A stretch of DNA of 41,215 nt from Thermoleophilia bacterium (GTDB lineage Bacteria; Actinomycetota; Thermoleophilia; BMS3ABIN01): contig JACWAM010000027.1 in assembly GCA_014874265.1 (NCBI GenBank), positions 1 through 41,215 of the forward strand. The letters run 5' to 3'. A program made the translations under genes and the position numbers. Positions 10,331-38,537 of this stretch are shown here, piece by piece. Positions within the stretch are counted from its first letter, which is position 1. Each line of letters opens with the position of its first letter. Below the pieces are notes generated by a model. That model saw nothing but the letters and a program-made list of their open reading frames with translations. It had not been told where the DNA came from and ran no database searches.

Positions 10331-10405
10331 GTTTCTAGTTTCTGGTTTCAAGTTTAAAGTTGACCAGTAAGAATGTTTTTAACAAAAAACTTGAAACCAG
10401 AAACT
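10331..10405. repeat. Inverted pair of heptad tracts between nadB and nadC
   Basis: Five in-phase heptads run from 10331 to 10365 (GTTTCTA GTTTCTG and so on), and three on the other arm from 10384 to 10404. Bases 10337-10355 are a perfect 19-base inverted repeat of 10387-10405, so the intercistronic RNA can fold into a long hairpin with a 31-base loop. The tract starts four bases after the nadB stop codon. Confidence 0.85.
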
Positions 10406-24450: not shown

Positions 24451-24478
24451 AGTTTCCTGTTTCCGGTTTCCGGTGAAA
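24451..24478. repeat. Heptad tract at the crp-like 3' end
   Basis: Four in-phase heptads (AGTTTCC TGTTTCC and two more) begin two bases after the stop codon. The tract at 24572-24606 is its approximate inverted complement. Confidence 0.8.
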
Positions 24479-24571
24479 GATGATGAAGATCACATTCGTA
24501 ACTGATTGCCCTCAATTTTAAGTAATGTTTAAACGGTTATCCTTCATGCAGGGTTAACAATTAATGGGTTT

Positions 24572-24606
24572 AACAGGAAACCGGAAAGCGTAAACCGAAA
24601 ACTTCT
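24572..24606. repeat. Heptad tract, inverted partner
   Basis: Five in-phase heptads beginning AACAGGA AACCGGA. They end just before the AAGGAG ribosome-binding site of the gene at 24619. Confidence 0.8.
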
Positions 24607-29870: not shown

Positions 29871-31688
29871 TTGTCGCTTAAGAGTTTTTTAATCGGCCAG
29901 CCGATCGAGACGCACAGGGAGAAGCACGAGCGCCTCTCCAAGTTCACCGGCTTGGCTATTTTTGCTTCCGATAACCTCTCCTCGGTCGCGTATGCCACCG
30001 AGGAAATTTTGCTGGCCCTCGTCGTGGCCGGCTCGGCGCTGCTTAACTTTGCCCTGCCTATCGCAATTGCCATCTCGGCGCTGCTGGCGATCATCGCCAT
30101 CTCATATTTTCAGACTATCCATGCTTATCCTTCCGGCGGCGGGTCATACATTGTGGCCAAAGACAATCTGGGCGATAACGCCGGCCTTGTCTCCGGAGCG
30201 GCGCTGCTGATCGATTACGTCCTCACCGTTTCCGTCAGCATCACCGCCGGCGTTGCCGCCATCACCTCAGCCATTCCCTCACTGGCTTCTCACACGGTGC
30301 TCCTGTGCCTGATCGCAATTGGCGTCCTCATGCTGGGCAACCTGAGAGGCGTCCGCGAAGCCGGCCGCATTTTCTCGATACCTACCTATTTCTTTATTTT
30401 CAGCCTGTTCACACTCATCGGCCTCGGCCTGTTCAAGGTGGTCACCGGCGCCCCGGCGCCGCCGCCCGGCCCGCCGCTAGTGGCAACGGAGAGCTACTTC
30501 GCTCTGTTTGTCATCCTCCGCGCCTTTGCCTCCGGCTGCGCGGCCGTCACCGGCATCGAAGCGGTCTCCAACGGGGTAAAAGCATTCAAAGCGCCGGAGG
30601 CGCGCAATGCCAGCCAGACGCTGCTCATCATGGCTTCGATCCTGGGAATATCGTTTGTCGGCACCTCATTCCTGGCGGACCATTTTCACATCCTGCCGGT
30701 AGCCAACCAGACGGTTCTGTCGCAGCTGGCGGCGATTGTTTTTGGCGGCCGCGGCGTTCCGTACTATCTGCTGCAGGCGGCAACGGCGCTGATCCTGATT
30801 CTCGCGGCCAACACATCTTTCCAGGATTTCCCACGCCTGTCTTCCGTAATGGCCGCCGATGGCTTCATGCCGCGGCAGTTCGGTAGCCGCGGCGACCGGC
30901 TTGTTTTTTCCAACGGGATCCTCATCCTGGGACTTTTTGCTGCGATTCTGGTCGTTGCGTTTGGCGGCGATACCCATAGACTGATTCCGCTTTACGCGCT
31001 CGGCGTCTTTCTGGCAATCACGCTGTCGCAGGCAGGGATGGTCAGGCACTGGCTCAGGACCAGGGAAAGAAAATGGCTGCGCAACATGTTCATCAACGGA
31101 TTCGGCGCCATCACTACCGCGGTCGTTGTTGCCATATTTGCGATCACCAAATTTACTGAAGGCGGCTGGATCGTGGTTATTGCCATTCCGGTGATCGTCT
31201 ATCTCACTCATCAGGTCAAAAAGCATTACGATTCCATCGCGCGGCAGCTTTCTTTGGAAGGCGCGGCGCCGGAGGTCGAGTTCAAGCACCACTCGGTGAT
31301 CGTACCCGTTTCCGGCGTGCAACGGGCAGTGATCCAGGCGATCAAGTATGCCAAGGTGCTCTCTGACGATGTAGTGGCCGTTTACGTTTGCTTTGACGAG
31401 GAAGAGATGGAAAAAGTCAGGCAGAAATGGGAGGAATTCGGCATGGGTGTGCCGCTCCGGGTGCTGGACTCGCCATACCGCTCGGTGATAGAGCCGCTGA
31501 TGGATTACATCGAGGACGTCCGGGTCCTGCACCCGGACGGCGTCATCACGGTGGTGCTGCCGGAGTTCGTCCCCCAAAAATGGTGGCACCACCTGCTGCA
31601 TAACCAGACGGCCCTTTTGATAAAAGGAATACTTTTATTCAAGCGGGGCGTCGTCTCCACCAGTGTGCCCATGCATCTGGAATCGTAG
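29871..31688 (+). CDS. kimA: KimA-like potassium importer (APC superfamily)
   Basis: A 605-residue protein with about 12 membrane segments (to residue about 445) and a soluble C-terminal domain of about 150 residues with an alpha/beta fold (HHSVIVPVSGVQRAV...). LSKFTGLAIFASDNLSSVAYATEEI and SGGGSYIVAKDNLG are typical of the KimA/YdaO K+:H+ symporters, and length matches. In Bacillus and Listeria KimA is inhibited by c-di-AMP at the C-terminal domain (established). Start: TTG 29871, with AAGGA ten bases upstream. The kdp operon with a c-di-AMP riboswitch follows. Confidence 0.85.
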   Translation: MSLKSFLIGQPIETHREKHERLSKFTGLAIFASDNLSSVAYATEEILLALVVAGSALLNFALPIAIAISALLAIIAISYFQTIHAYPSGGGSYIVAKDNLGDNAGLVSGAALLIDYVLTVSVSITAGVAAITSAIPSLASHTVLLCLIAIGVLMLGNLRGVREAGRIFSIPTYFFIFSLFTLIGLGLFKVVTGAPAPPPGPPLVATESYFALFVILRAFASGCAAVTGIEAVSNGVKAFKAPEARNASQTLLIMASILGISFVGTSFLADHFHILPVANQTVLSQLAAIVFGGRGVPYYLLQAATALILILAANTSFQDFPRLSSVMAADGFMPRQFGSRGDRLVFSNGILILGLFAAILVVAFGGDTHRLIPLYALGVFLAITLSQAGMVRHWLRTRERKWLRNMFINGFGAITTAVVVAIFAITKFTEGGWIVVIAIPVIVYLTHQVKKHYDSIARQLSLEGAAPEVEFKHHSVIVPVSGVQRAVIQAIKYAKVLSDDVVAVYVCFDEEEMEKVRQKWEEFGMGVPLRVLDSPYRSVIEPLMDYIEDVRVLHPDGVITVVLPEFVPQKWWHHLLHNQTALLIKGILLFKRGVVSTSVPMHLES

Positions 31689-31748: not shown

Positions 31749-31888
31749 AACATAATCACCGTAGCCGAAATCCATCCGGCGGATGGATGCGGGGGACCCA
31801 ACTTTCCGGGGCGTATTCCGACAGGATAGGGCACTTCCAGGCCCGAGCCCGACAGCTAACCTCGCAGGCGTTTGGAAGGACATGAGCA
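31749..31888 (+). promoter_or_regulatory. ydaO/yuaA-type c-di-AMP riboswitch
   Basis: Contains the conserved landmarks in order: GCCGAAATCC, GGGGGACCCA, a central variable hairpin region, CCCGACAGCTAACCTCGCAG and GCGTTTGGAAGGA. A terminator follows directly. In this class c-di-AMP binding favours termination, so kdp should be shut off when c-di-AMP (and K+) is high. This regulation of K+ uptake genes is established for other bacteria. Confidence 0.92.
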
Positions 31889-31893
31889 GGCTT

Positions 31894-31924
31894 AAAGTCG
31901 CTGGCTCCTGTCGGCGGCTTTTTT
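31894..31924 (+). terminator. Riboswitch expression-platform terminator
   Basis: AAAGTCGC (31894-31901) pairs with GCGGCTTT (31914-31921), followed by T residues to 31924. It is the off-state element of the c-di-AMP riboswitch, 80 bases before kdpA. No kdpF-like ORF is found in 31925-32003. Confidence 0.85.
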
Positions 31925-32003
31925 CATGCCCGGATATGCTTGTTTATCGCGGCCGCCGGGCAGGAATGGTCCAGACTCGAGGCAGTCAAAGGCATGAGGC
32001 AAG

Positions 32004-33731
32004 ATGCAGAATTTTGAGATATACGACCTGATCGAGATCGCGGCGCTGCTGGCCGTGCTCCTGCTGCTGGTCAAGCCGCTGGGCTCCTACATGGCCAGAG
32101 TCTACCAGGGCGAGAAGAACCTGCTCAGCCCGGTGCTGCGGCCGCTGGAGCGGCTGGTCTACCGCTTTGCCGGCATCGACGAGCAGAAGGAAAGCGGCTG
32201 GAAGCAGTATGCTTTTGCCTTCCTGCTGTTCAACGGCCTGGGCATCGTCTTCCTCTTTCTCGTGCTCGTCTTCCAGGGCGTGCTGCCGCTCAATCCCCAG
32301 GGTTTGCCCGGTTTCCCGCTGACGCTGGCGTTCAACACCGCCGTGAGCTTCATTACCAACACCAACTGGCAGAACTACGCAGGTGAATCAACTGCCAGCT
32401 ATTTTACCCAGACGGTGCCGCTGACGCTGAGCCACTTTGTATCCGCGGCCGCCGGCATGGCCGTCGTCATCGCCCTCATCCGCGGCATCGCCCGCCGCAC
32501 GGCCGAGCAGATCGGCAACTTCTGGGTCGATCTCACCCGCGGCGTACTCTACATCCTGCTGCCGATCGCGCTGATCGCCGGCATCTTCCTGGTGTCGCAG
32601 GGAGTAATCCAGAATTTCAGCGGCTACCAGCAGGCCCGTCTGGTACAGGCGCAAAACCGGAACGGCGCCGTCACCACGCAGGTTCTGCCGATGGGACCGG
32701 TGGCCTCGTTCGAGTCGATCAAGCTGCTGGGCACCAACGGCGGCGGCTTTTTCAACGCCAATTCGGCGCATCCTTATGAAAACCCGTCACCGCTGACCAA
32801 CTTTGTCGAGATTGCGCTGTTTTTGATGATCCCGCTGGCGCTTACCCATACGTTTGGCCGCATGGTGGGCAACACGCGCCAGGGGTGGGCCATCCTCACG
32901 GCGATGCTGATCATCCTGGTCGTCTCGCTGGGAGCGATGTACTGGTCGGAGCGTGCCGGAAATCCCCTGATTCACCGGCAGGGCATTGCCGGTCCCAACA
33001 TGGAAGGCAAAGAAGTCAGATTTGGCATTGGCGGTTCGACCCTGTTTTCCGCCGGCACCACCGCCACCTCCGACGGCGCTGTAAACTCCATGCTTGACTC
33101 GTATACGCCGCTGGGCGGCGGCGTCAACATGTTCCTGATGCTGCTGGGCGAGGTGGTGCCCGGCGGCGTCGGCTCCGGGCTTTACACGATGCTGGGATTT
33201 GTCATCATCGCCGTCTTTGTCGCCGGCCTGATGATCGGCCGCACGCCGGAATATCTGGGCAAGAAGATCGAGGTGCGCGAGATGTGGATGTCCGTGATCA
33301 TAGTTTTGACATCTGGCATTTCTGTACTGATATTCTCGGGGATGGCGCTGCTGCTCCCGGCCGGTACGGGCGCCATTCTCAACCCGGGGCCGCACGGCCT
33401 CAGCGAGGTGCTGTACGCCTATGCGTCAGCGTCCAACAACAACGGCAGCGCCTTTGCCGGCATCTCCGCCAACACATCTTTTTATAACCTGACCCTGGGC
33501 TTTGCGATGCTGCTGGGCCGCTTCCTGCCGGCTGTGGCGGCGCTGGCGATGTCAGGCTCGCTGGCGGCGAAAAAATACGTGCCGCCCAGCCTGGGCACGC
33601 TGCCAACCAATAACCTGACGTTCATCGGCTGGCTGATCGTGGTCGTGCTCATCGTCGGGGCGCTCACCTTCCTGCCGGCGCTCGGCCTGGGGCCGATAGT
33701 CGAGCATCTGATCATGATCGGGAGAAAATAG
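32004..33731 (+). CDS. kdpA: Potassium-transporting ATPase subunit KdpA
   Basis: A 575-residue polytopic membrane subunit that binds and channels K+ in the high-affinity KdpFABC pump. It has the selectivity-filter segments [14 protein letters not shown] and [17 protein letters not shown], and the family end [14 protein letters not shown]. Length is normal. Start: ATG 32004, with GAGG four bases upstream. Its stop overlaps the kdpB start. Confidence 0.97.
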
Positions 33732-35797
33732 TGACGTCTGTTGACAAGAAACAGGATTCAATCTTTAGCAAGAAACTGATGTGGCCGGCGCTGAGAGGCA
33801 CCTTCTCCAAGCTGAACCCGGTGACGCTCTGGCGCAATCCGGTGATGTTTTTCGTCGAGATCGGGGGCATCATCACTGCTCTGAACTTTGTCTACAATAT
33901 CATCACCGGCAAAGGAGATCCCGCCTGGTTTACCGGCGCCGTCTCAATGCTTCTCTGGCTGACGGTCATGTTCGCCACATTTGCTGAATCACTGGCGGAG
34001 GGCCGCGGCAAGGCGCGGGCCGAGTCCCTCCGAAAATCGCGCACCGAGATCATTGCTAAAAAGGTAAAGCAGCCGGACCCCTCCGGACCCGCCACGGAGA
34101 TTAACGCCAACGACCTCCGCAAGGGAGACCTGGTGCTGGTCGGCGCCAATGAACTGATCCCCGGCGACGGCGACGTCGTCTTCGGGGCGGCGCTGGTGGA
34201 TGAATCCGCCATCACCGGCGAGTCTGCCCCCGTGGTGCGCGAGTCCGGCGGCGACCGCAGCGCAGTCACCGGCGGCACCCGCGTCACGGCCACCGAGAAC
34301 ATCATCGTGCAGATCACCGCCGACCCCGGCGAGACCTTCATCGACAAGATGGTTTCGCTGGTGGAAGGCGCCAAGCGGCGCAAGACGCCCAATGAGATCG
34401 CGCTCAACATCCTGCTGATCGCGCTGACGATCATCTTCCTGCTGGTGGTGTTCAACCTCAACTCGCTGTCGAGCTATAGCGTCAAGGCTGCCGGTCAGGG
34501 CACGGTCGTCAGCCTGGTGGTGCTGATCGCGCTGTTCGTCTGTCTGGCGCCGACCACAATCGCCGCGCTGCTGCCGGCCATCGGCATCGCCGGCATGGAC
34601 CGGCTCTTCTCGCGCAACGTGATGGCGCTGTCGGGGCGCGCCATCGAGGCCGCCGGCGACGTCAACACGCTGCTGCTGGACAAGACCGGCACCATCACCC
34701 TGGGCAACCGCGAGGCGGTGGAGTTCATCGCCATCGGGGGGCATTCCGGGGAAGAGGTCGTTGACGCGGCGCTGATGTCCTCCTTCACCGACGAAACGCC
34801 GGAGGGGCGCAGCATCATCGTGCTGGCCAAGCAGATGGGCTCGCGGCTTCAGGAGTTGCCCGATCACGCCGCTCCGGTGCCGTTCAGGGCTGAGACCAGG
34901 ATCAGCGGTGTTGACTTGGAGGATCATTCGTACCGGAAGGGCGCGCCGGATTCGATCGTCAGGTATATCGAGCAGCGGGGCGGCTCGGTCCCGGCCGAGC
35001 TCGAACAGAAAGTCACCGAGATCGCCAGGGCCGGCTCGACGCCGCTGGCGGTCACGCGTGACAATGAGGTGCTCGGCGTCATCAATTTGAAGGACATCAT
35101 CAAGGGCGGCATCCAGGAGCGCTTTGCGCAGCTGAGGAAGATGGGCATCAAGACAGTGATGATCACCGGCGACAACCCGCTGACCGCCGCGGCCATCGCC
35201 GCCGAGGCCAATGTGGACGATTTCCTCGCCGAAGCGAAGCCGGAGGACAAGCTGAAGCTCATCCGCGACTACCAGGCTGACGGCTACATGGTGGCCATGA
35301 CCGGCGACGGCACCAACGACGCGCCGGCGCTGGCGCAGGCCGACGTGGCCGTGGCGATGAACACCGGCACGCAGCCGGCCCGCGATGCGGCCAATATCAT
35401 CGATCTGGACTCCAATCCCACGAAGCTGCTGGACATCGTCGAGATCGGCAAGCAGATCCTGATGACGCGCGGCAATCTGACCACGTTCTCGATCGCCAAC
35501 GACATCGCCAAGTATTTCGCCATCATCCCGGCGGCGCTGACCTCGGTCTATCCGCAGCTTCAGACGCTGAACCTGATGCACCTGGCAAATCCGCACAGCG
35601 CCATCCTGTCAGCGGTGATCTTCAACGCCCTCGTCATCCCGTTCCTGATCCCGCTGGCGCTCAAAGGCACGCGCTACCGGCCGATGCCGGCGCAGAAGCT
35701 GCTGGTGTACAACCTGTTCATCTACGGTCTGGGCGGGGTGATCGCGCCGTTTATCGGCATCAAACTCATCGACATGCTGGTGACCTTTTCGATATGA
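33731..35797 (+). CDS. kdpB: Potassium-transporting ATPase ATP-binding subunit KdpB
   Basis: A 688-residue type IA P-type ATPase. Actuator motif [12 protein letters not shown] (the TGES serine is the known inhibitory phosphorylation site in E. coli), phosphorylation motif DKTGTIT, nucleotide-binding KGAPDSI and hinge [21 protein letters not shown] are all intact. Seven or so membrane helices. Start: GTG 33731, overlapping the kdpA stop by one base; stop overlaps kdpC by four (ATGA). Confidence 0.97.
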
Positions 35798-36393
35798 AAC
35801 TGGCGGAGATAAAAAGAGCGCTGTTGTTGCTCGTCATATTCATGGTACTATTGACCGTCATCTATCCGGCGGTGGTGACGCTGGCGGGCCGGGTTGCCTT
35901 TCCCGGCAAGGCAGGTGGCAGCCTGATTCAGCAGAACGGCGTCGTGGTGGGCTCCAGCCTCATCGGCCAGCCGTTCTCGGAGGCAAAATATTTCTGGCCG
36001 CGGCCGTCGGCGACGGCTTCTGACGGCGGCAGCATGCCGTATGATCCCCTGGCCTCGGGCGGCTCCAACCTGGGCCCCACCAATCCGAAGCTGGTTAGCC
36101 CCGATCCCGGGACCGGCGAGGTCAGCGGCGCCGCCAAGGCGCTGAGAGACTCGGGTGTCACCGGCCCGCTGCCGATCGACCTGGTGACGTCCTCAGGAAG
36201 CGGTCTGGACCCGGATATCACTATTGAAGCGGCAAACGTACAGGTCGCGCGCGTTGCCGCAGCCAGGAACATGCCCGCGCCAAAGGTGCAGCAGATCGTC
36301 GACGATCACATCGAGGGCCGCTGGCTCGGGTTCATGGGAACGGAGCGGGTGAACGTGCTGGAGCTTAACATGGCGCTGGACCGGGCAGGTTAA
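35794..36393 (+). CDS. kdpC: Potassium-transporting ATPase subunit KdpC
   Basis: A 199-residue subunit with one N-terminal membrane helix (about 10-32) and a periplasmic/extracytoplasmic domain. [27 protein letters not shown] and the end [13 protein letters not shown] are typical. Start: ATG 35794 within the kdpB stop. Last gene of kdpABC; a terminator follows 100 bases later. Confidence 0.96.
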
Positions 36394-36428: not shown

Positions 36429-36545
36429 ATGGCATCGACTCAGGACCGATACATACGGCGCAAGCGGAAATCCCGAGACGGTTATCCTCAACTATTAAAA
36501 AAGTCCGGAAGCAGCCGGGCTTTTTTCCATCACGCCAATGGCTGA
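36429..36545 (+). CDS. Possible 38-codon leader ORF spanning the kdpC-kdpD terminator
   Basis: ATG 36429 opens a basic 38-residue frame that runs through the terminator hairpin and ends at a TGA overlapping the kdpD start (36538). Ribosomes translating it would open the hairpin and reach kdpD. No good ribosome-binding site is seen, so it may be chance. Confidence 0.25.
   Translation: MASTQDRYIRRKRKSRDGYPQLLKKSGSSRAFFHHANG
36497..36526 (+). terminator. Intrinsic terminator between kdpC and kdpD
   Basis: AAAAAAGTCCGG (36497-36508) pairs with CCGGGCTTTTTT (36515-36526) with one G-U pair and a six-base loop, ending in six Ts. The kdpD ATG is only 12 bases further on, leaving no room for a ribosome-binding site outside the hairpin. 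Confidence 0.85.
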
Positions 36546-38487
36546 CAAGGAAAAACCCAGGCCCGAACCAGATGAGCTGCTCAAGCTGGCGCAGCGCGAA
36601 GAAGCCGCGAAAAAGCGGGGCAAGCTGACTGTCTATCTGGGGGCGGCTCCCGGAGTGGGCAAGACCTACGCCATGCTCAGCGACGGCCGCCAGCGGAAAC
36701 AGGAAGGGATCGACGTCGTCGTTGGCTACGCGGAGACGCACGGCCGCGCCGAGACTGACGCCCTGCTTGAAGGGCTTGAGATACTTCCACCGCTGGCGCT
36801 CGAATACCGTGGCTTCACCCTGCGTGACTTTGACCTGGAGGGGGCGCTCGAACGCCGGCCGCGGCTGATCCTCGTCGACGAGCTGGCTCACACGAACGCC
36901 CCGGGGATGCGGCACCGCAAACGCTACCAGGACGTCGAAGAGCTGCTCGACGCCGGCATCGATGTTTACACCACGGTCAACGTCCAGCACCTGGAAAGCC
37001 TCAATGATGTCGTCAGCCAGATCGTCGAGATCCGGGTGAAGGAGACGGTCCCGGACACGATTGTCGACAGGGCCGAGGAGGTCAAGCTGATCGACCTGCC
37101 GCCGGAGGAGCTGATCAAGCGGCTTCACGACGGCAAGGTGTACGTCAAGGATATAGTCGGCATCGCGGTGGAAAAATATTTCCGTCCCGGCAACCTGCTG
37201 GCGCTACGGGAGCTGGCTCTCAGGGTGGTCGCCGGCACCGTCGACGACCGCATGCGCAGCTACATGCGCCAGTATGCCATCTCCGGCATCTGGCCAACCA
37301 AGGAGCGCGTCCTGGCGGCGATCTTTGCCAGCCCCTACGCGGAAAAGCTGATCCGCTCCGCCTATCGCCTGGCATCGGAGATCGACGCGGAACTGATTGC
37401 CTTCCACGTGGAAACGGAAAAGAACCAGGGCTTCTCCGATCAGGAGAACATCTGGCTCAACAACGCCCTGGACCTGGCCAAGAAGCTGGGCGCCCGCATC
37501 GTCTGGGTCAAAGGCTCCGACGTGGCGGCGGCGATCGCCGACTACGCCCAGAAGAACAACATCACAAAAGTCATTATCGGTAAACCGAGACGGCACCGGC
37601 TGCTGCCCTCGCTTTCCAGCAGCATCCTCATCAATACCCCCAACATCGACATTTATCTGATGGATTCGGGCGCGCCGGCTGGCCCGCCCGTAAAAACCGG
37701 GCGCCGCCTGTCTTTTCCGGTCGACTATCTGGCCGGCTTTGCCGCTGTCGTGGCAATCGCGGCCTTCACCTTCGTCCTGCGCGACGTCATGAACCAGGTC
37801 GACCTGCTGTTCCTTTTTCTCCTGCCTCCGATTCTGAGCGCCATCTATCTGGGCCGGGGACCGTCCATACTCACATCGATCGTGGGGATCCTGGCTTTCG
37901 ACTACCTGTTCGTGCCGCCCCTCTACAGCTTCTGGATCTCTGATCTTTCTTACTTCTTCTCGTTCGTCATCTACTTTGGCATCGTCGTCATCGTGGCTCA
38001 CCTGGCGCTGGGCCGCCGCAGCAAGATCAACCTGCTCAAGGAGAGCGAATCGAAAAGTATCGCCCTGTACGGGCTCAGCCGCGACCTGATCGCCGCCAGA
38101 AATCTGGAGCAGGTGCTGTCGATCCTGCTCAGGCACACGCGCCAGCTGTTTGACTGCGAGCTGGCTGTATTCATGCCTGAGGCGGGACACCTGGAGGTAA
38201 AAGCAAAGTCAGACCGGTTCGAAATCGATTCTGAAGTCACCGGCGTAGCTGCCTGGGTGCTGGCAAACCGGCAGATGGCCGGACGCGGCACGGGGACTTT
38301 GCCGGAATCGCCGGCGCTCTACGTGCCCATGGCTTATGAGCAGATTATTGTCGGCGTTATGGGGATTAAAGGCGAGAAGAACCTGCTGGCCAGCCACGAA
38401 CAGCAGGTAGTGCTTGACACAATTGCCGGCCTTGGTGCCATGGCTCTAATGAGAGTTTCCGGTTTCCAGTTGCCAGTTTACAGTTAA
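36538..38487 (+). CDS. kdpD: KdpD sensor lacking the histidine-kinase domains
   Basis: A 649-residue protein with the KdpD N-terminal domain (Walker A GAAPGVGKT, 35-43; LVDELAHTNAPG Walker B), a universal-stress domain (about 260-380), the four-helix DUF4118 membrane region (about 395-500) and a GAF domain (about 505-638). It stops there; full KdpD has about 890 residues, with a DHp helix pair and HATPase domain that are absent. The final residues RVSGFQLPVYS are encoded by heptad repeats. No kdpE is present. Short KdpD forms are known in cyanobacteria; this one may be a regulator without kinase activity or a decayed gene. Start: ATG 36538, without a visible ribosome-binding site. Confidence 0.9.
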   Translation: MADKEKPRPEPDELLKLAQREEAAKKRGKLTVYLGAAPGVGKTYAMLSDGRQRKQEGIDVVVGYAETHGRAETDALLEGLEILPPLALEYRGFTLRDFDLEGALERRPRLILVDELAHTNAPGMRHRKRYQDVEELLDAGIDVYTTVNVQHLESLNDVVSQIVEIRVKETVPDTIVDRAEEVKLIDLPPEELIKRLHDGKVYVKDIVGIAVEKYFRPGNLLALRELALRVVAGTVDDRMRSYMRQYAISGIWPTKERVLAAIFASPYAEKLIRSAYRLASEIDAELIAFHVETEKNQGFSDQENIWLNNALDLAKKLGARIVWVKGSDVAAAIADYAQKNNITKVIIGKPRRHRLLPSLSSSILINTPNIDIYLMDSGAPAGPPVKTGRRLSFPVDYLAGFAAVVAIAAFTFVLRDVMNQVDLLFLFLLPPILSAIYLGRGPSILTSIVGILAFDYLFVPPLYSFWISDLSYFFSFVIYFGIVVIVAHLALGRRSKINLLKESESKSIALYGLSRDLIAARNLEQVLSILLRHTRQLFDCELAVFMPEAGHLEVKAKSDRFEIDSEVTGVAAWVLANRQMAGRGTGTLPESPALYVPMAYEQIIVGVMGIKGEKNLLASHEQQVVLDTIAGLGAMALMRVSGFQLPVYS

Positions 38488-38537
38488 AACCCTCTTACGA
38501 TCAACCAGAAACTCGAGGCCCGAAACCGGAATTAAAA
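38455..38537. repeat. Inverted pair of heptad tracts at the kdpD 3' end
   Basis: Five in-phase heptads at 38455-38489 (GTTTCCG GTTTCCA ...) and five at 38503-38537 in the inverse sense (AACCAGA, AACCGGA). The first arm is coding: it supplies the last eleven codons and the stop of the truncated kdpD. Confidence 0.9.

What the first reader, a model, noticed from the sequence alone, without database searches (positions are those of the whole stretch)
38100..38537. KdpD truncated exactly at a heptad repeat tract, with no KdpE
KdpD keeps its KdpD, USP, four-TM and GAF domains, then the reading frame enters heptads at 38455 and stops. DHp and HATPase domains and a response regulator are missing. 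The join suggests the tract arose at, or caused, the deletion. Control of kdp may have passed to the c-di-AMP riboswitch, with the remnant kept as a K+ or c-di-AMP sensor. The S. aureus SxS...FTAxY c-di-AMP motif is not evident here.
Basis: partly seen in the sequence, partly recalled or inferred. Interest (0 to 1): 0.58.

Follow-up and report, generated by a model that had tools for sequence, protein, structure and literature searches.

The report
Kinase-less KdpD on riboswitch-controlled potassium pump
A bacterial potassium-pump regulator lacks its signalling half, but that state is old and shared with distant relatives, a nearby DNA repeat did not cause it, and the part that remains probably still switches the pump off while an RNA switch controls its genes.

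Summary
kdpD (36538-38487, 649 aa) has KdpD, Usp, DUF4118/TM and a complete GAF domain, then stops without DHp/CA; its last codons run into a heptad tract at 38455. I found no KdpE and no orphan KdpD kinase half in this 97%-complete assembly. The heptads are one arm of a dispersed gene-edge repeat that replaced the last few codons. The remnant is best read as a KdpB-inhibiting atypical serine kinase, as shown for E. coli KdpD (PMC11018627), which also describes kinase-less KdpDs in species without KdpE. Passing of transcription control to the c-di-AMP riboswitch (31753-31885, plus terminator hairpin) is supported. Known parts are combined in a less usual way: published riboswitch-kdp systems (12 species, Bacillales) have N-terminal-only KdpD, whereas here the TM/GAF domains stay; similar loci occur in Nitrospirota, Desulfurella and a delta MAG.

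The parts
31753..31885 (+). c-di-AMP riboswitch aptamer ahead of kdpA
   Evidence: RF00379, 84.1 bits, gathering score 38
31894..31925 (+). terminator hairpin and T run behind the aptamer (likely expression platform)
   Evidence: fold of 31886-31930: -21.7 kcal/mol, z -4.02, 0 of 200 shuffles as good; missed by the simple scan
32004..33731 (+). kdpA, 575 aa
   Evidence: ORF; full-length matches across relatives
33731..35797 (+). kdpB, 688 aa; TGES serine is residue 165 (34223-34225), the position of E. coli S162
   Evidence: ORF; alignment column
35794..36393 (+). kdpC, 199 aa
   Evidence: ORF; matches in relatives
36538..38487 (+). kinase-less kdpD, 649 aa: KdpD 26-235, Usp 256-360, DUF4118/TM 397-491, GAF 522-637, no DHp/CA
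   Evidence: serine-kinase residues intact; dN/dS 0.05-0.22
38455..38482 (+). first heptad arm; codes for the last 10 residues and supplies the stop context
   Evidence: absent in 4 of 5 same-family relatives with kdpD
38506..38533 (-). second, convergent heptad arm
   Evidence: 16 of 20 in the scan

Best explanation
kdpABCD here is a K+-pump operon with two separate brakes. (1) Transcription: a c-di-AMP riboswitch with a terminator ahead of kdpA turns the operon off when c-di-AMP, and so K+, is high; it stands in for KdpDE. (2) Activity: the kinase-less KdpD is an atypical serine kinase that phosphorylates the TGES serine of KdpB at high K+ and stops pumps already made, with the retained TM/GAF part as the likely K+ input. 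The histidine-kinase half was lost, or was never joined, long before this family arose. The heptad tract is a later dispersed repeat that replaced only the last few codons. Shown here: architecture, motifs, riboswitch, lack of KdpE, age of the truncation. Inferred: kinase activity, its stimulus, and the direction of the riboswitch.
For: Same truncation in 5 of 5 same-family relatives with kdpD, 4 without heptads; all-truncated clade of 19 in a 77-row tree and the same grouping for KdpB. Walker A, Walker B and Arg190 positions invariant in 77 of 77 rows, position 39 aromatic; KdpB Glu-Ser in 67 of 67. dN/dS 0.05-0.22 in every domain. E. coli KdpD without DHp/CA still phosphorylates KdpB, and kinase-less versions go with lack of KdpE (PMC11018627). 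Riboswitch and hairpin, a diadenylate cyclase domain in the genome, KdpE absent.
Against: No activity was measured. TGES is general to P-type ATPases (recalled), so its conservation says little. G004 keeps the truncated KdpD but has lost a recognisable aptamer, and the archaeal members never show it, so riboswitch and truncation are not tied one to one. The Usp domain lacks the S. aureus c-di-AMP motif, so c-di-AMP input to KdpD itself is open.
Confidence: 0.72

Rival explanations
1. The heptad tract arose at, or caused, the deletion of DHp/CA.
For: The frame does enter the tract and stop; the nearest relative G005 has the tract too.
Against: G004, G003, G013 and G011 stop at the same point without it; so do relatives in other phyla; the repeat occurs all over the genome and at other gene edges.
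Confidence: 0.02
2. The truncated KdpD is a decaying pseudogene left after the loss of KdpE.
For: It lacks the histidine-kinase half and sits at an operon end; 13 of 18 same-family relatives show no kdpD at all.
Against: Open frame in all members, dN/dS 0.05-0.22 in all domains including GAF, invariant catalytic positions, and the same end kept across phyla.
Confidence: 0.04
3. KdpD still acts in a two-component way by handing its signal to an unlinked histidine kinase or regulator of another family.
For: The genome has 15 HisKA kinases and 5 OmpR-type regulators, and split kinase/KdpD systems exist in the class.
Against: No kinase or regulator scores like a Kdp member, and none lies by the operon.
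Confidence: 0.1
4. KdpD is a c-di-AMP-stimulated serine kinase, as in D. geothermalis, so that c-di-AMP controls both layers and TM/GAF is a passive anchor.
For: Usp is kept, a diadenylate cyclase domain is present, and D. geothermalis short KdpD is stimulated by c-di-AMP.
Against: The S. aureus-type motif is missing (weak, since 0 of 77 rows have it exactly), and TM/GAF, where the suggested E. coli K+ sites lie, is kept under selection.
Confidence: 0.2

Closest known systems
KdpD versions with truncated DHpCA in species without KdpE (PMC11018627)
   Same: KdpD-Usp-TM-GAF kept, histidine-kinase part gone, KdpE gone, serine-kinase residues intact
   Different: A riboswitch controls the operon here; the paper discusses riboswitches for some Bacillota only (passages read)
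c-di-AMP riboswitch-controlled kdpFABC of Bacillus thuringiensis (PMC6488665)
   Same: RF00379 leader with terminator ahead of kdp, truncated KdpD downstream, no KdpE
   Different: There KdpD is 365 aa, N-terminal only, and the arrangement was reported from 12 species restricted to Bacillales (passages read); here KdpD keeps TM and GAF and the host is an actinomycete family
NCBIfam NF038185 KdpD-like non-kinase potassium sensor
   Same: KdpD and Usp domains without a kinase
   Different: Model of 373 aa; the window scores 377 bits against a cut-off of 550 and has TM and GAF besides
E. coli KdpD tandem serine/histidine kinase
   Same: Same domain order up to GAF; serine-kinase residues shared except W39, here Tyr
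   Different: No histidine-kinase half and no KdpE

Membership tests
KdpD sensor histidine kinase (full length) | DHp and CA domains behind GAF | tested here: not met
   No HisKA or HATPase in the 649-aa ORF
KdpD sensor histidine kinase (full length) | Partner response regulator KdpE | tested here: not met
   Own regulators at most 233.8 bits; members 301 or more, held-out 258-299
Kinase-less KdpD (DHpCA-truncated, serine kinase only) | KdpD domain with G-X5-GKT, Walker B DE and the adenine-contacting Arg | tested here: met
   Alignment with E. coli KdpD, 77 rows
Kinase-less KdpD (DHpCA-truncated, serine kinase only) | Species lacks KdpE | tested here: met
   within a 97.37%-complete assembly
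Kinase-less KdpD (DHpCA-truncated, serine kinase only) | Phosphorylates the KdpB TGES serine | not testable with these tools
   Target serine is present; activity needs an assay
c-di-AMP riboswitch RF00379 | Sequence and structure reach the gathering score | tested here: met
   84.1 bits against 38
S. aureus-type c-di-AMP-binding KdpD | SXS-X20-FTAXY in the Usp domain | tested here: not met
   Motif absent; F and S at the SXS slot, LIAFH at the FTAXY slot
NF038185 KdpD_non_kinase | Score over the curated cut-off of 550 | tested here: not met
   377.1 bits
   4 of 5 same-family relatives are truncated without the tract

The most novel reading that the evidence does not exclude
A third wiring of the Kdp pump that spread between phyla as one operon: c-di-AMP controls transcription through a riboswitch while K+ controls activity through a dedicated membrane serine kinase (KdpD-Usp-TM-GAF), with no two-component step. 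The published designs use K+ for both layers (E. coli) or c-di-AMP for both (short KdpD, with a riboswitch in some Bacillota).
Probability: 0.4. Interest if true: 0.55.

Novelty: new variant of a known kind. Interest (0 to 1): 0.36.

Why it matters
It removes a false lead (repeat-driven gene truncation) and fits the gene to a recent model in which the serine-kinase half is the conserved core of KdpD. It extends riboswitch-controlled kdp from Bacillales to an actinomycete family, Nitrospirota, Desulfurella and a delta MAG. It also offers natural kinase-less KdpDs that keep TM/GAF, in which the K+ input of the serine kinase can be tested without histidine-kinase activity in the way.

Tried and rejected
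Heptads as cause of the truncation: rejected. Orphan kinase half elsewhere: rejected on profile scores, but the margin is thinner than for KdpE: held-out split kinases covering most of the profile score 195-224 against an own maximum of 183, and shorter held-out fragments score below 183. The NCBIfam KdpE cut-off in 5 relatives: 0 of 5 over it, but only 1 of 14 control genomes passes it, so it is too strict to prove absence. The simple terminator scan missed the riboswitch hairpin; folding found it. A first KdpB serine regex was too strict and was replaced by an alignment column. A riboswitch seemingly straight before kdpD in L081 looked like a new arrangement, but the stretch between reads by eye as the tail of kdpC, and that assembly has no true KdpB (best match 29% identical); deletion or chimera, so it was left out of the counts. 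AlphaFold model: mean pLDDT 69.3, pTM 0.33, used only for the GAF region and the loose tail; no fold search was run.

Rows dropped before counts: of 80 loci, 5 with kdpD open at a contig end and L126 (broken frame) were left out of the truncated/full split. L179, L118 and L105 were left out of the KdpB tree. In the class draw G380 (743-aa frame) was not fetched.

Full report
Observation. kdpD at 36538-38487 encodes 649 aa with KdpD, Usp, DUF4118 and a complete GAF_3 domain (profile 1-127 of 129) and no kinase domains. From 38455 the frame reads V-S-G-F-Q-L-P-V-Y-S-stop through a heptad tract. A 4-unit scan finds 7 such tracts in the window against 0.05 per mononucleotide shuffle. The structure model gives block means of 74-90 pLDDT for residues 521-640 and under 50 for 644-649 (overall quality modest), so the heptads code only for a loose tail behind a finished GAF domain.

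The truncation is older than the heptads. Of 18 same-family relatives searched, 5 carry kdpD. All 5 stop just after GAF: G005 ...LGAMALTRVSSF, G004 ...LGAMALARIGR, G003 ...GKVGAARRTAPTV, G013 ...LGAVALERIARK, and G011, whose gene is split over two contig ends...LERIRKRKAGAP. Only G005, the nearest, has the heptads; scans of G004, G003 and G013 find none, and the G011 end shows none by eye. Of 80 named loci, 35 were truncated, 39 full length, 5 open at a contig end and 1 broken. A KdpE match of at least 170 bits lies in 37 of 39 full-length loci (L113 ends at the contig edge; L120 has only a 38-bit match) and in 2 of 35 truncated ones (L118, L148), both with a separate kinase match beside it. 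In a 77-row tree of residues 1-640 the window lies in an all-truncated clade of 19 rows (SH-aLRT 99) from Actinomycetota, Nitrospirota, a delta MAG, Thermotogota, Campylobacterota, Aquificota and Methanosarcinales-type archaea; at least 4 changes between the two states are needed (quick search, sample chosen by similarity to the window, root unknown, so loss and late fusion cannot be told apart). A KdpB tree gives a matching grouping (16 rows, support 100): window KdpB is 66-74% identical to the six clade members outside its family that I printed but 58-61% to the four class-mates printed, which suggests that the operon moved between phyla. In the class draw (399 genomes), the 9 non-family loci with long frames that I fetched encode a short KdpD (380-402 aa, one 458) and not this form.

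What the heptads are. The pattern occurs 156 times in the genome against 74 for its reversed control (up to 2 mismatches). In the window it forms three convergent arm pairs at 10331/10377, 24452/24575 and 38455/38506, all at gene edges. At kdpD it replaced the last few codons and moved the stop. The RNA hairpin across it is only modestly stable (z -1.57).

No KdpE, no orphan half. The genome has 1 PF02702 match, 15 HisKA and 5 Trans_reg_C regulators. With a KdpE profile the regulators reach 233.8 bits, against 301 or more for members, 258-299 for held-out KdpEs and 269 as the lowest leave-cluster-out score. NCBIfam places the three of five regulators scanned nearest MtrA, YycF and CseB; E. coli KdpE as control scores 487.6 with the KdpE model. 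The kinases reach 183 bits with a KdpD kinase-half profile, against 290 or more for members.

What the remnant probably does. In E. coli the N-terminal KdpD domain is an atypical serine kinase that phosphorylates KdpB S162 and shuts the pump; removing DHp/CA does not stop it (PMC11018627; passages and section 8 read). The same paper reports versions with truncated DHpCA, mostly in species without KdpE. In the window the named residues are present except that W39 is Tyr; over 77 rows the Gly, GKT, DE and Arg positions are invariant and position 39 is Y, F or W. The KdpB target is present in 67 of 67, though TGES is general to P-type ATPases (recalled). dN/dS by NG86 is 0.05-0.22 in every domain against G005, G004, G003 and G013; dS is high and YN00 often failed, so these are rough, but they fit purifying selection on GAF and TM too. 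The paper places all K+ sensing sites suggested for E. coli KdpD in TM/GAF, so a K+ input is likely kept.

Transcription control. RF00379 matches 31753-31885 at 84.1 bits, followed by a strong terminator hairpin, 119 bases before kdpA. Among clade members whose kdp leader could be scanned, the riboswitch is present before kdp in 8 of 10 bacterial ones (window, G005, G003, G013, L079, L080, L085 cut by the contig end, L087); the misses are G004 and L088. It is in 0 of 4 archaeal ones (L083, L084, L094, L097). L080 is binned as Methanoperedens but I count it as bacterial because its kdp is Nitrospirota-like; by its title the counts are 7 of 9 and 1 of 5. L081 is left out. Among truncated loci outside the clade with a scanned leader, 0 of 8 have it (L099, L104, L109, L115, L117, L118, L140, L148). 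Among full-length loci, 0 of 10 scanned have one in sense before kdp; L102 has one on the opposite strand. G004 keeps the 3' half and terminator but scores 16.9 bits. Wang et al. 2019 (PMC6488665, passages read) reported 12 riboswitch-kdp species, all with N-terminal-only KdpD, seemingly restricted to Bacillales. I found no report of the combination seen here in searches, which cover open-licence papers only.

Model. High K+ raises c-di-AMP (as cited in PMC11018627), which stops kdp transcription at the riboswitch, and KdpD, reading K+ through TM/GAF, phosphorylates KdpB on pumps already made. The S. aureus c-di-AMP motif in Usp is missing here: F and S at the SXS slot and LIAFH at the FTAXY slot (motif from PMC4686210, passages). 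No row of 77 has that exact motif, so its absence is weak evidence. The genome has one diadenylate cyclase domain, and a KimA-type K+ importer sits directly upstream.

Verdict. The causal story about the heptads is wrong. The regulatory story is largely right and mostly known, with a modestly new combination and host range.

Noticed in passing
window 10331-10404, 24452-24602, 38455-38533; genome-wide: A dispersed element of two convergent degenerate GTTTCNN tracts some 20-120 bases apart, at gene edges; 156 arm hits in the genome against 74 for the reversed control. Its nature was not worked out.
   Followed up: partly
window 29871-31688: A gene for a KimA-type potassium importer (6s3k, 545.6 bits) lies directly upstream of the riboswitch and kdp, so this is a double K+-uptake locus.
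   Followed up: partly
L081 1-298: In a Nitrospiraceae MAG the riboswitch runs straight into the tail of kdpC and then kdpD, and the assembly has no true KdpB: a deletion of kdpABC or an assembly chimera.
   Followed up: partly
L077 2290-2403: The kdp leader of G004 keeps the 3' half of the riboswitch and its terminator while the 5' half has diverged (16.9 bits): a natural riboswitch loss with truncated KdpD kept.
   Followed up: partly
L080: A contig binned as Candidatus Methanoperedens carries a c-di-AMP riboswitch and a Nitrospirota-like kdp operon; possible mis-binning.
   Followed up: no
L169-L174: Class-mates outside the family use a split system: a kinase-half match and KdpE before kdpA, and a short KdpD (385-402 aa) after kdpB.
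   Followed up: no
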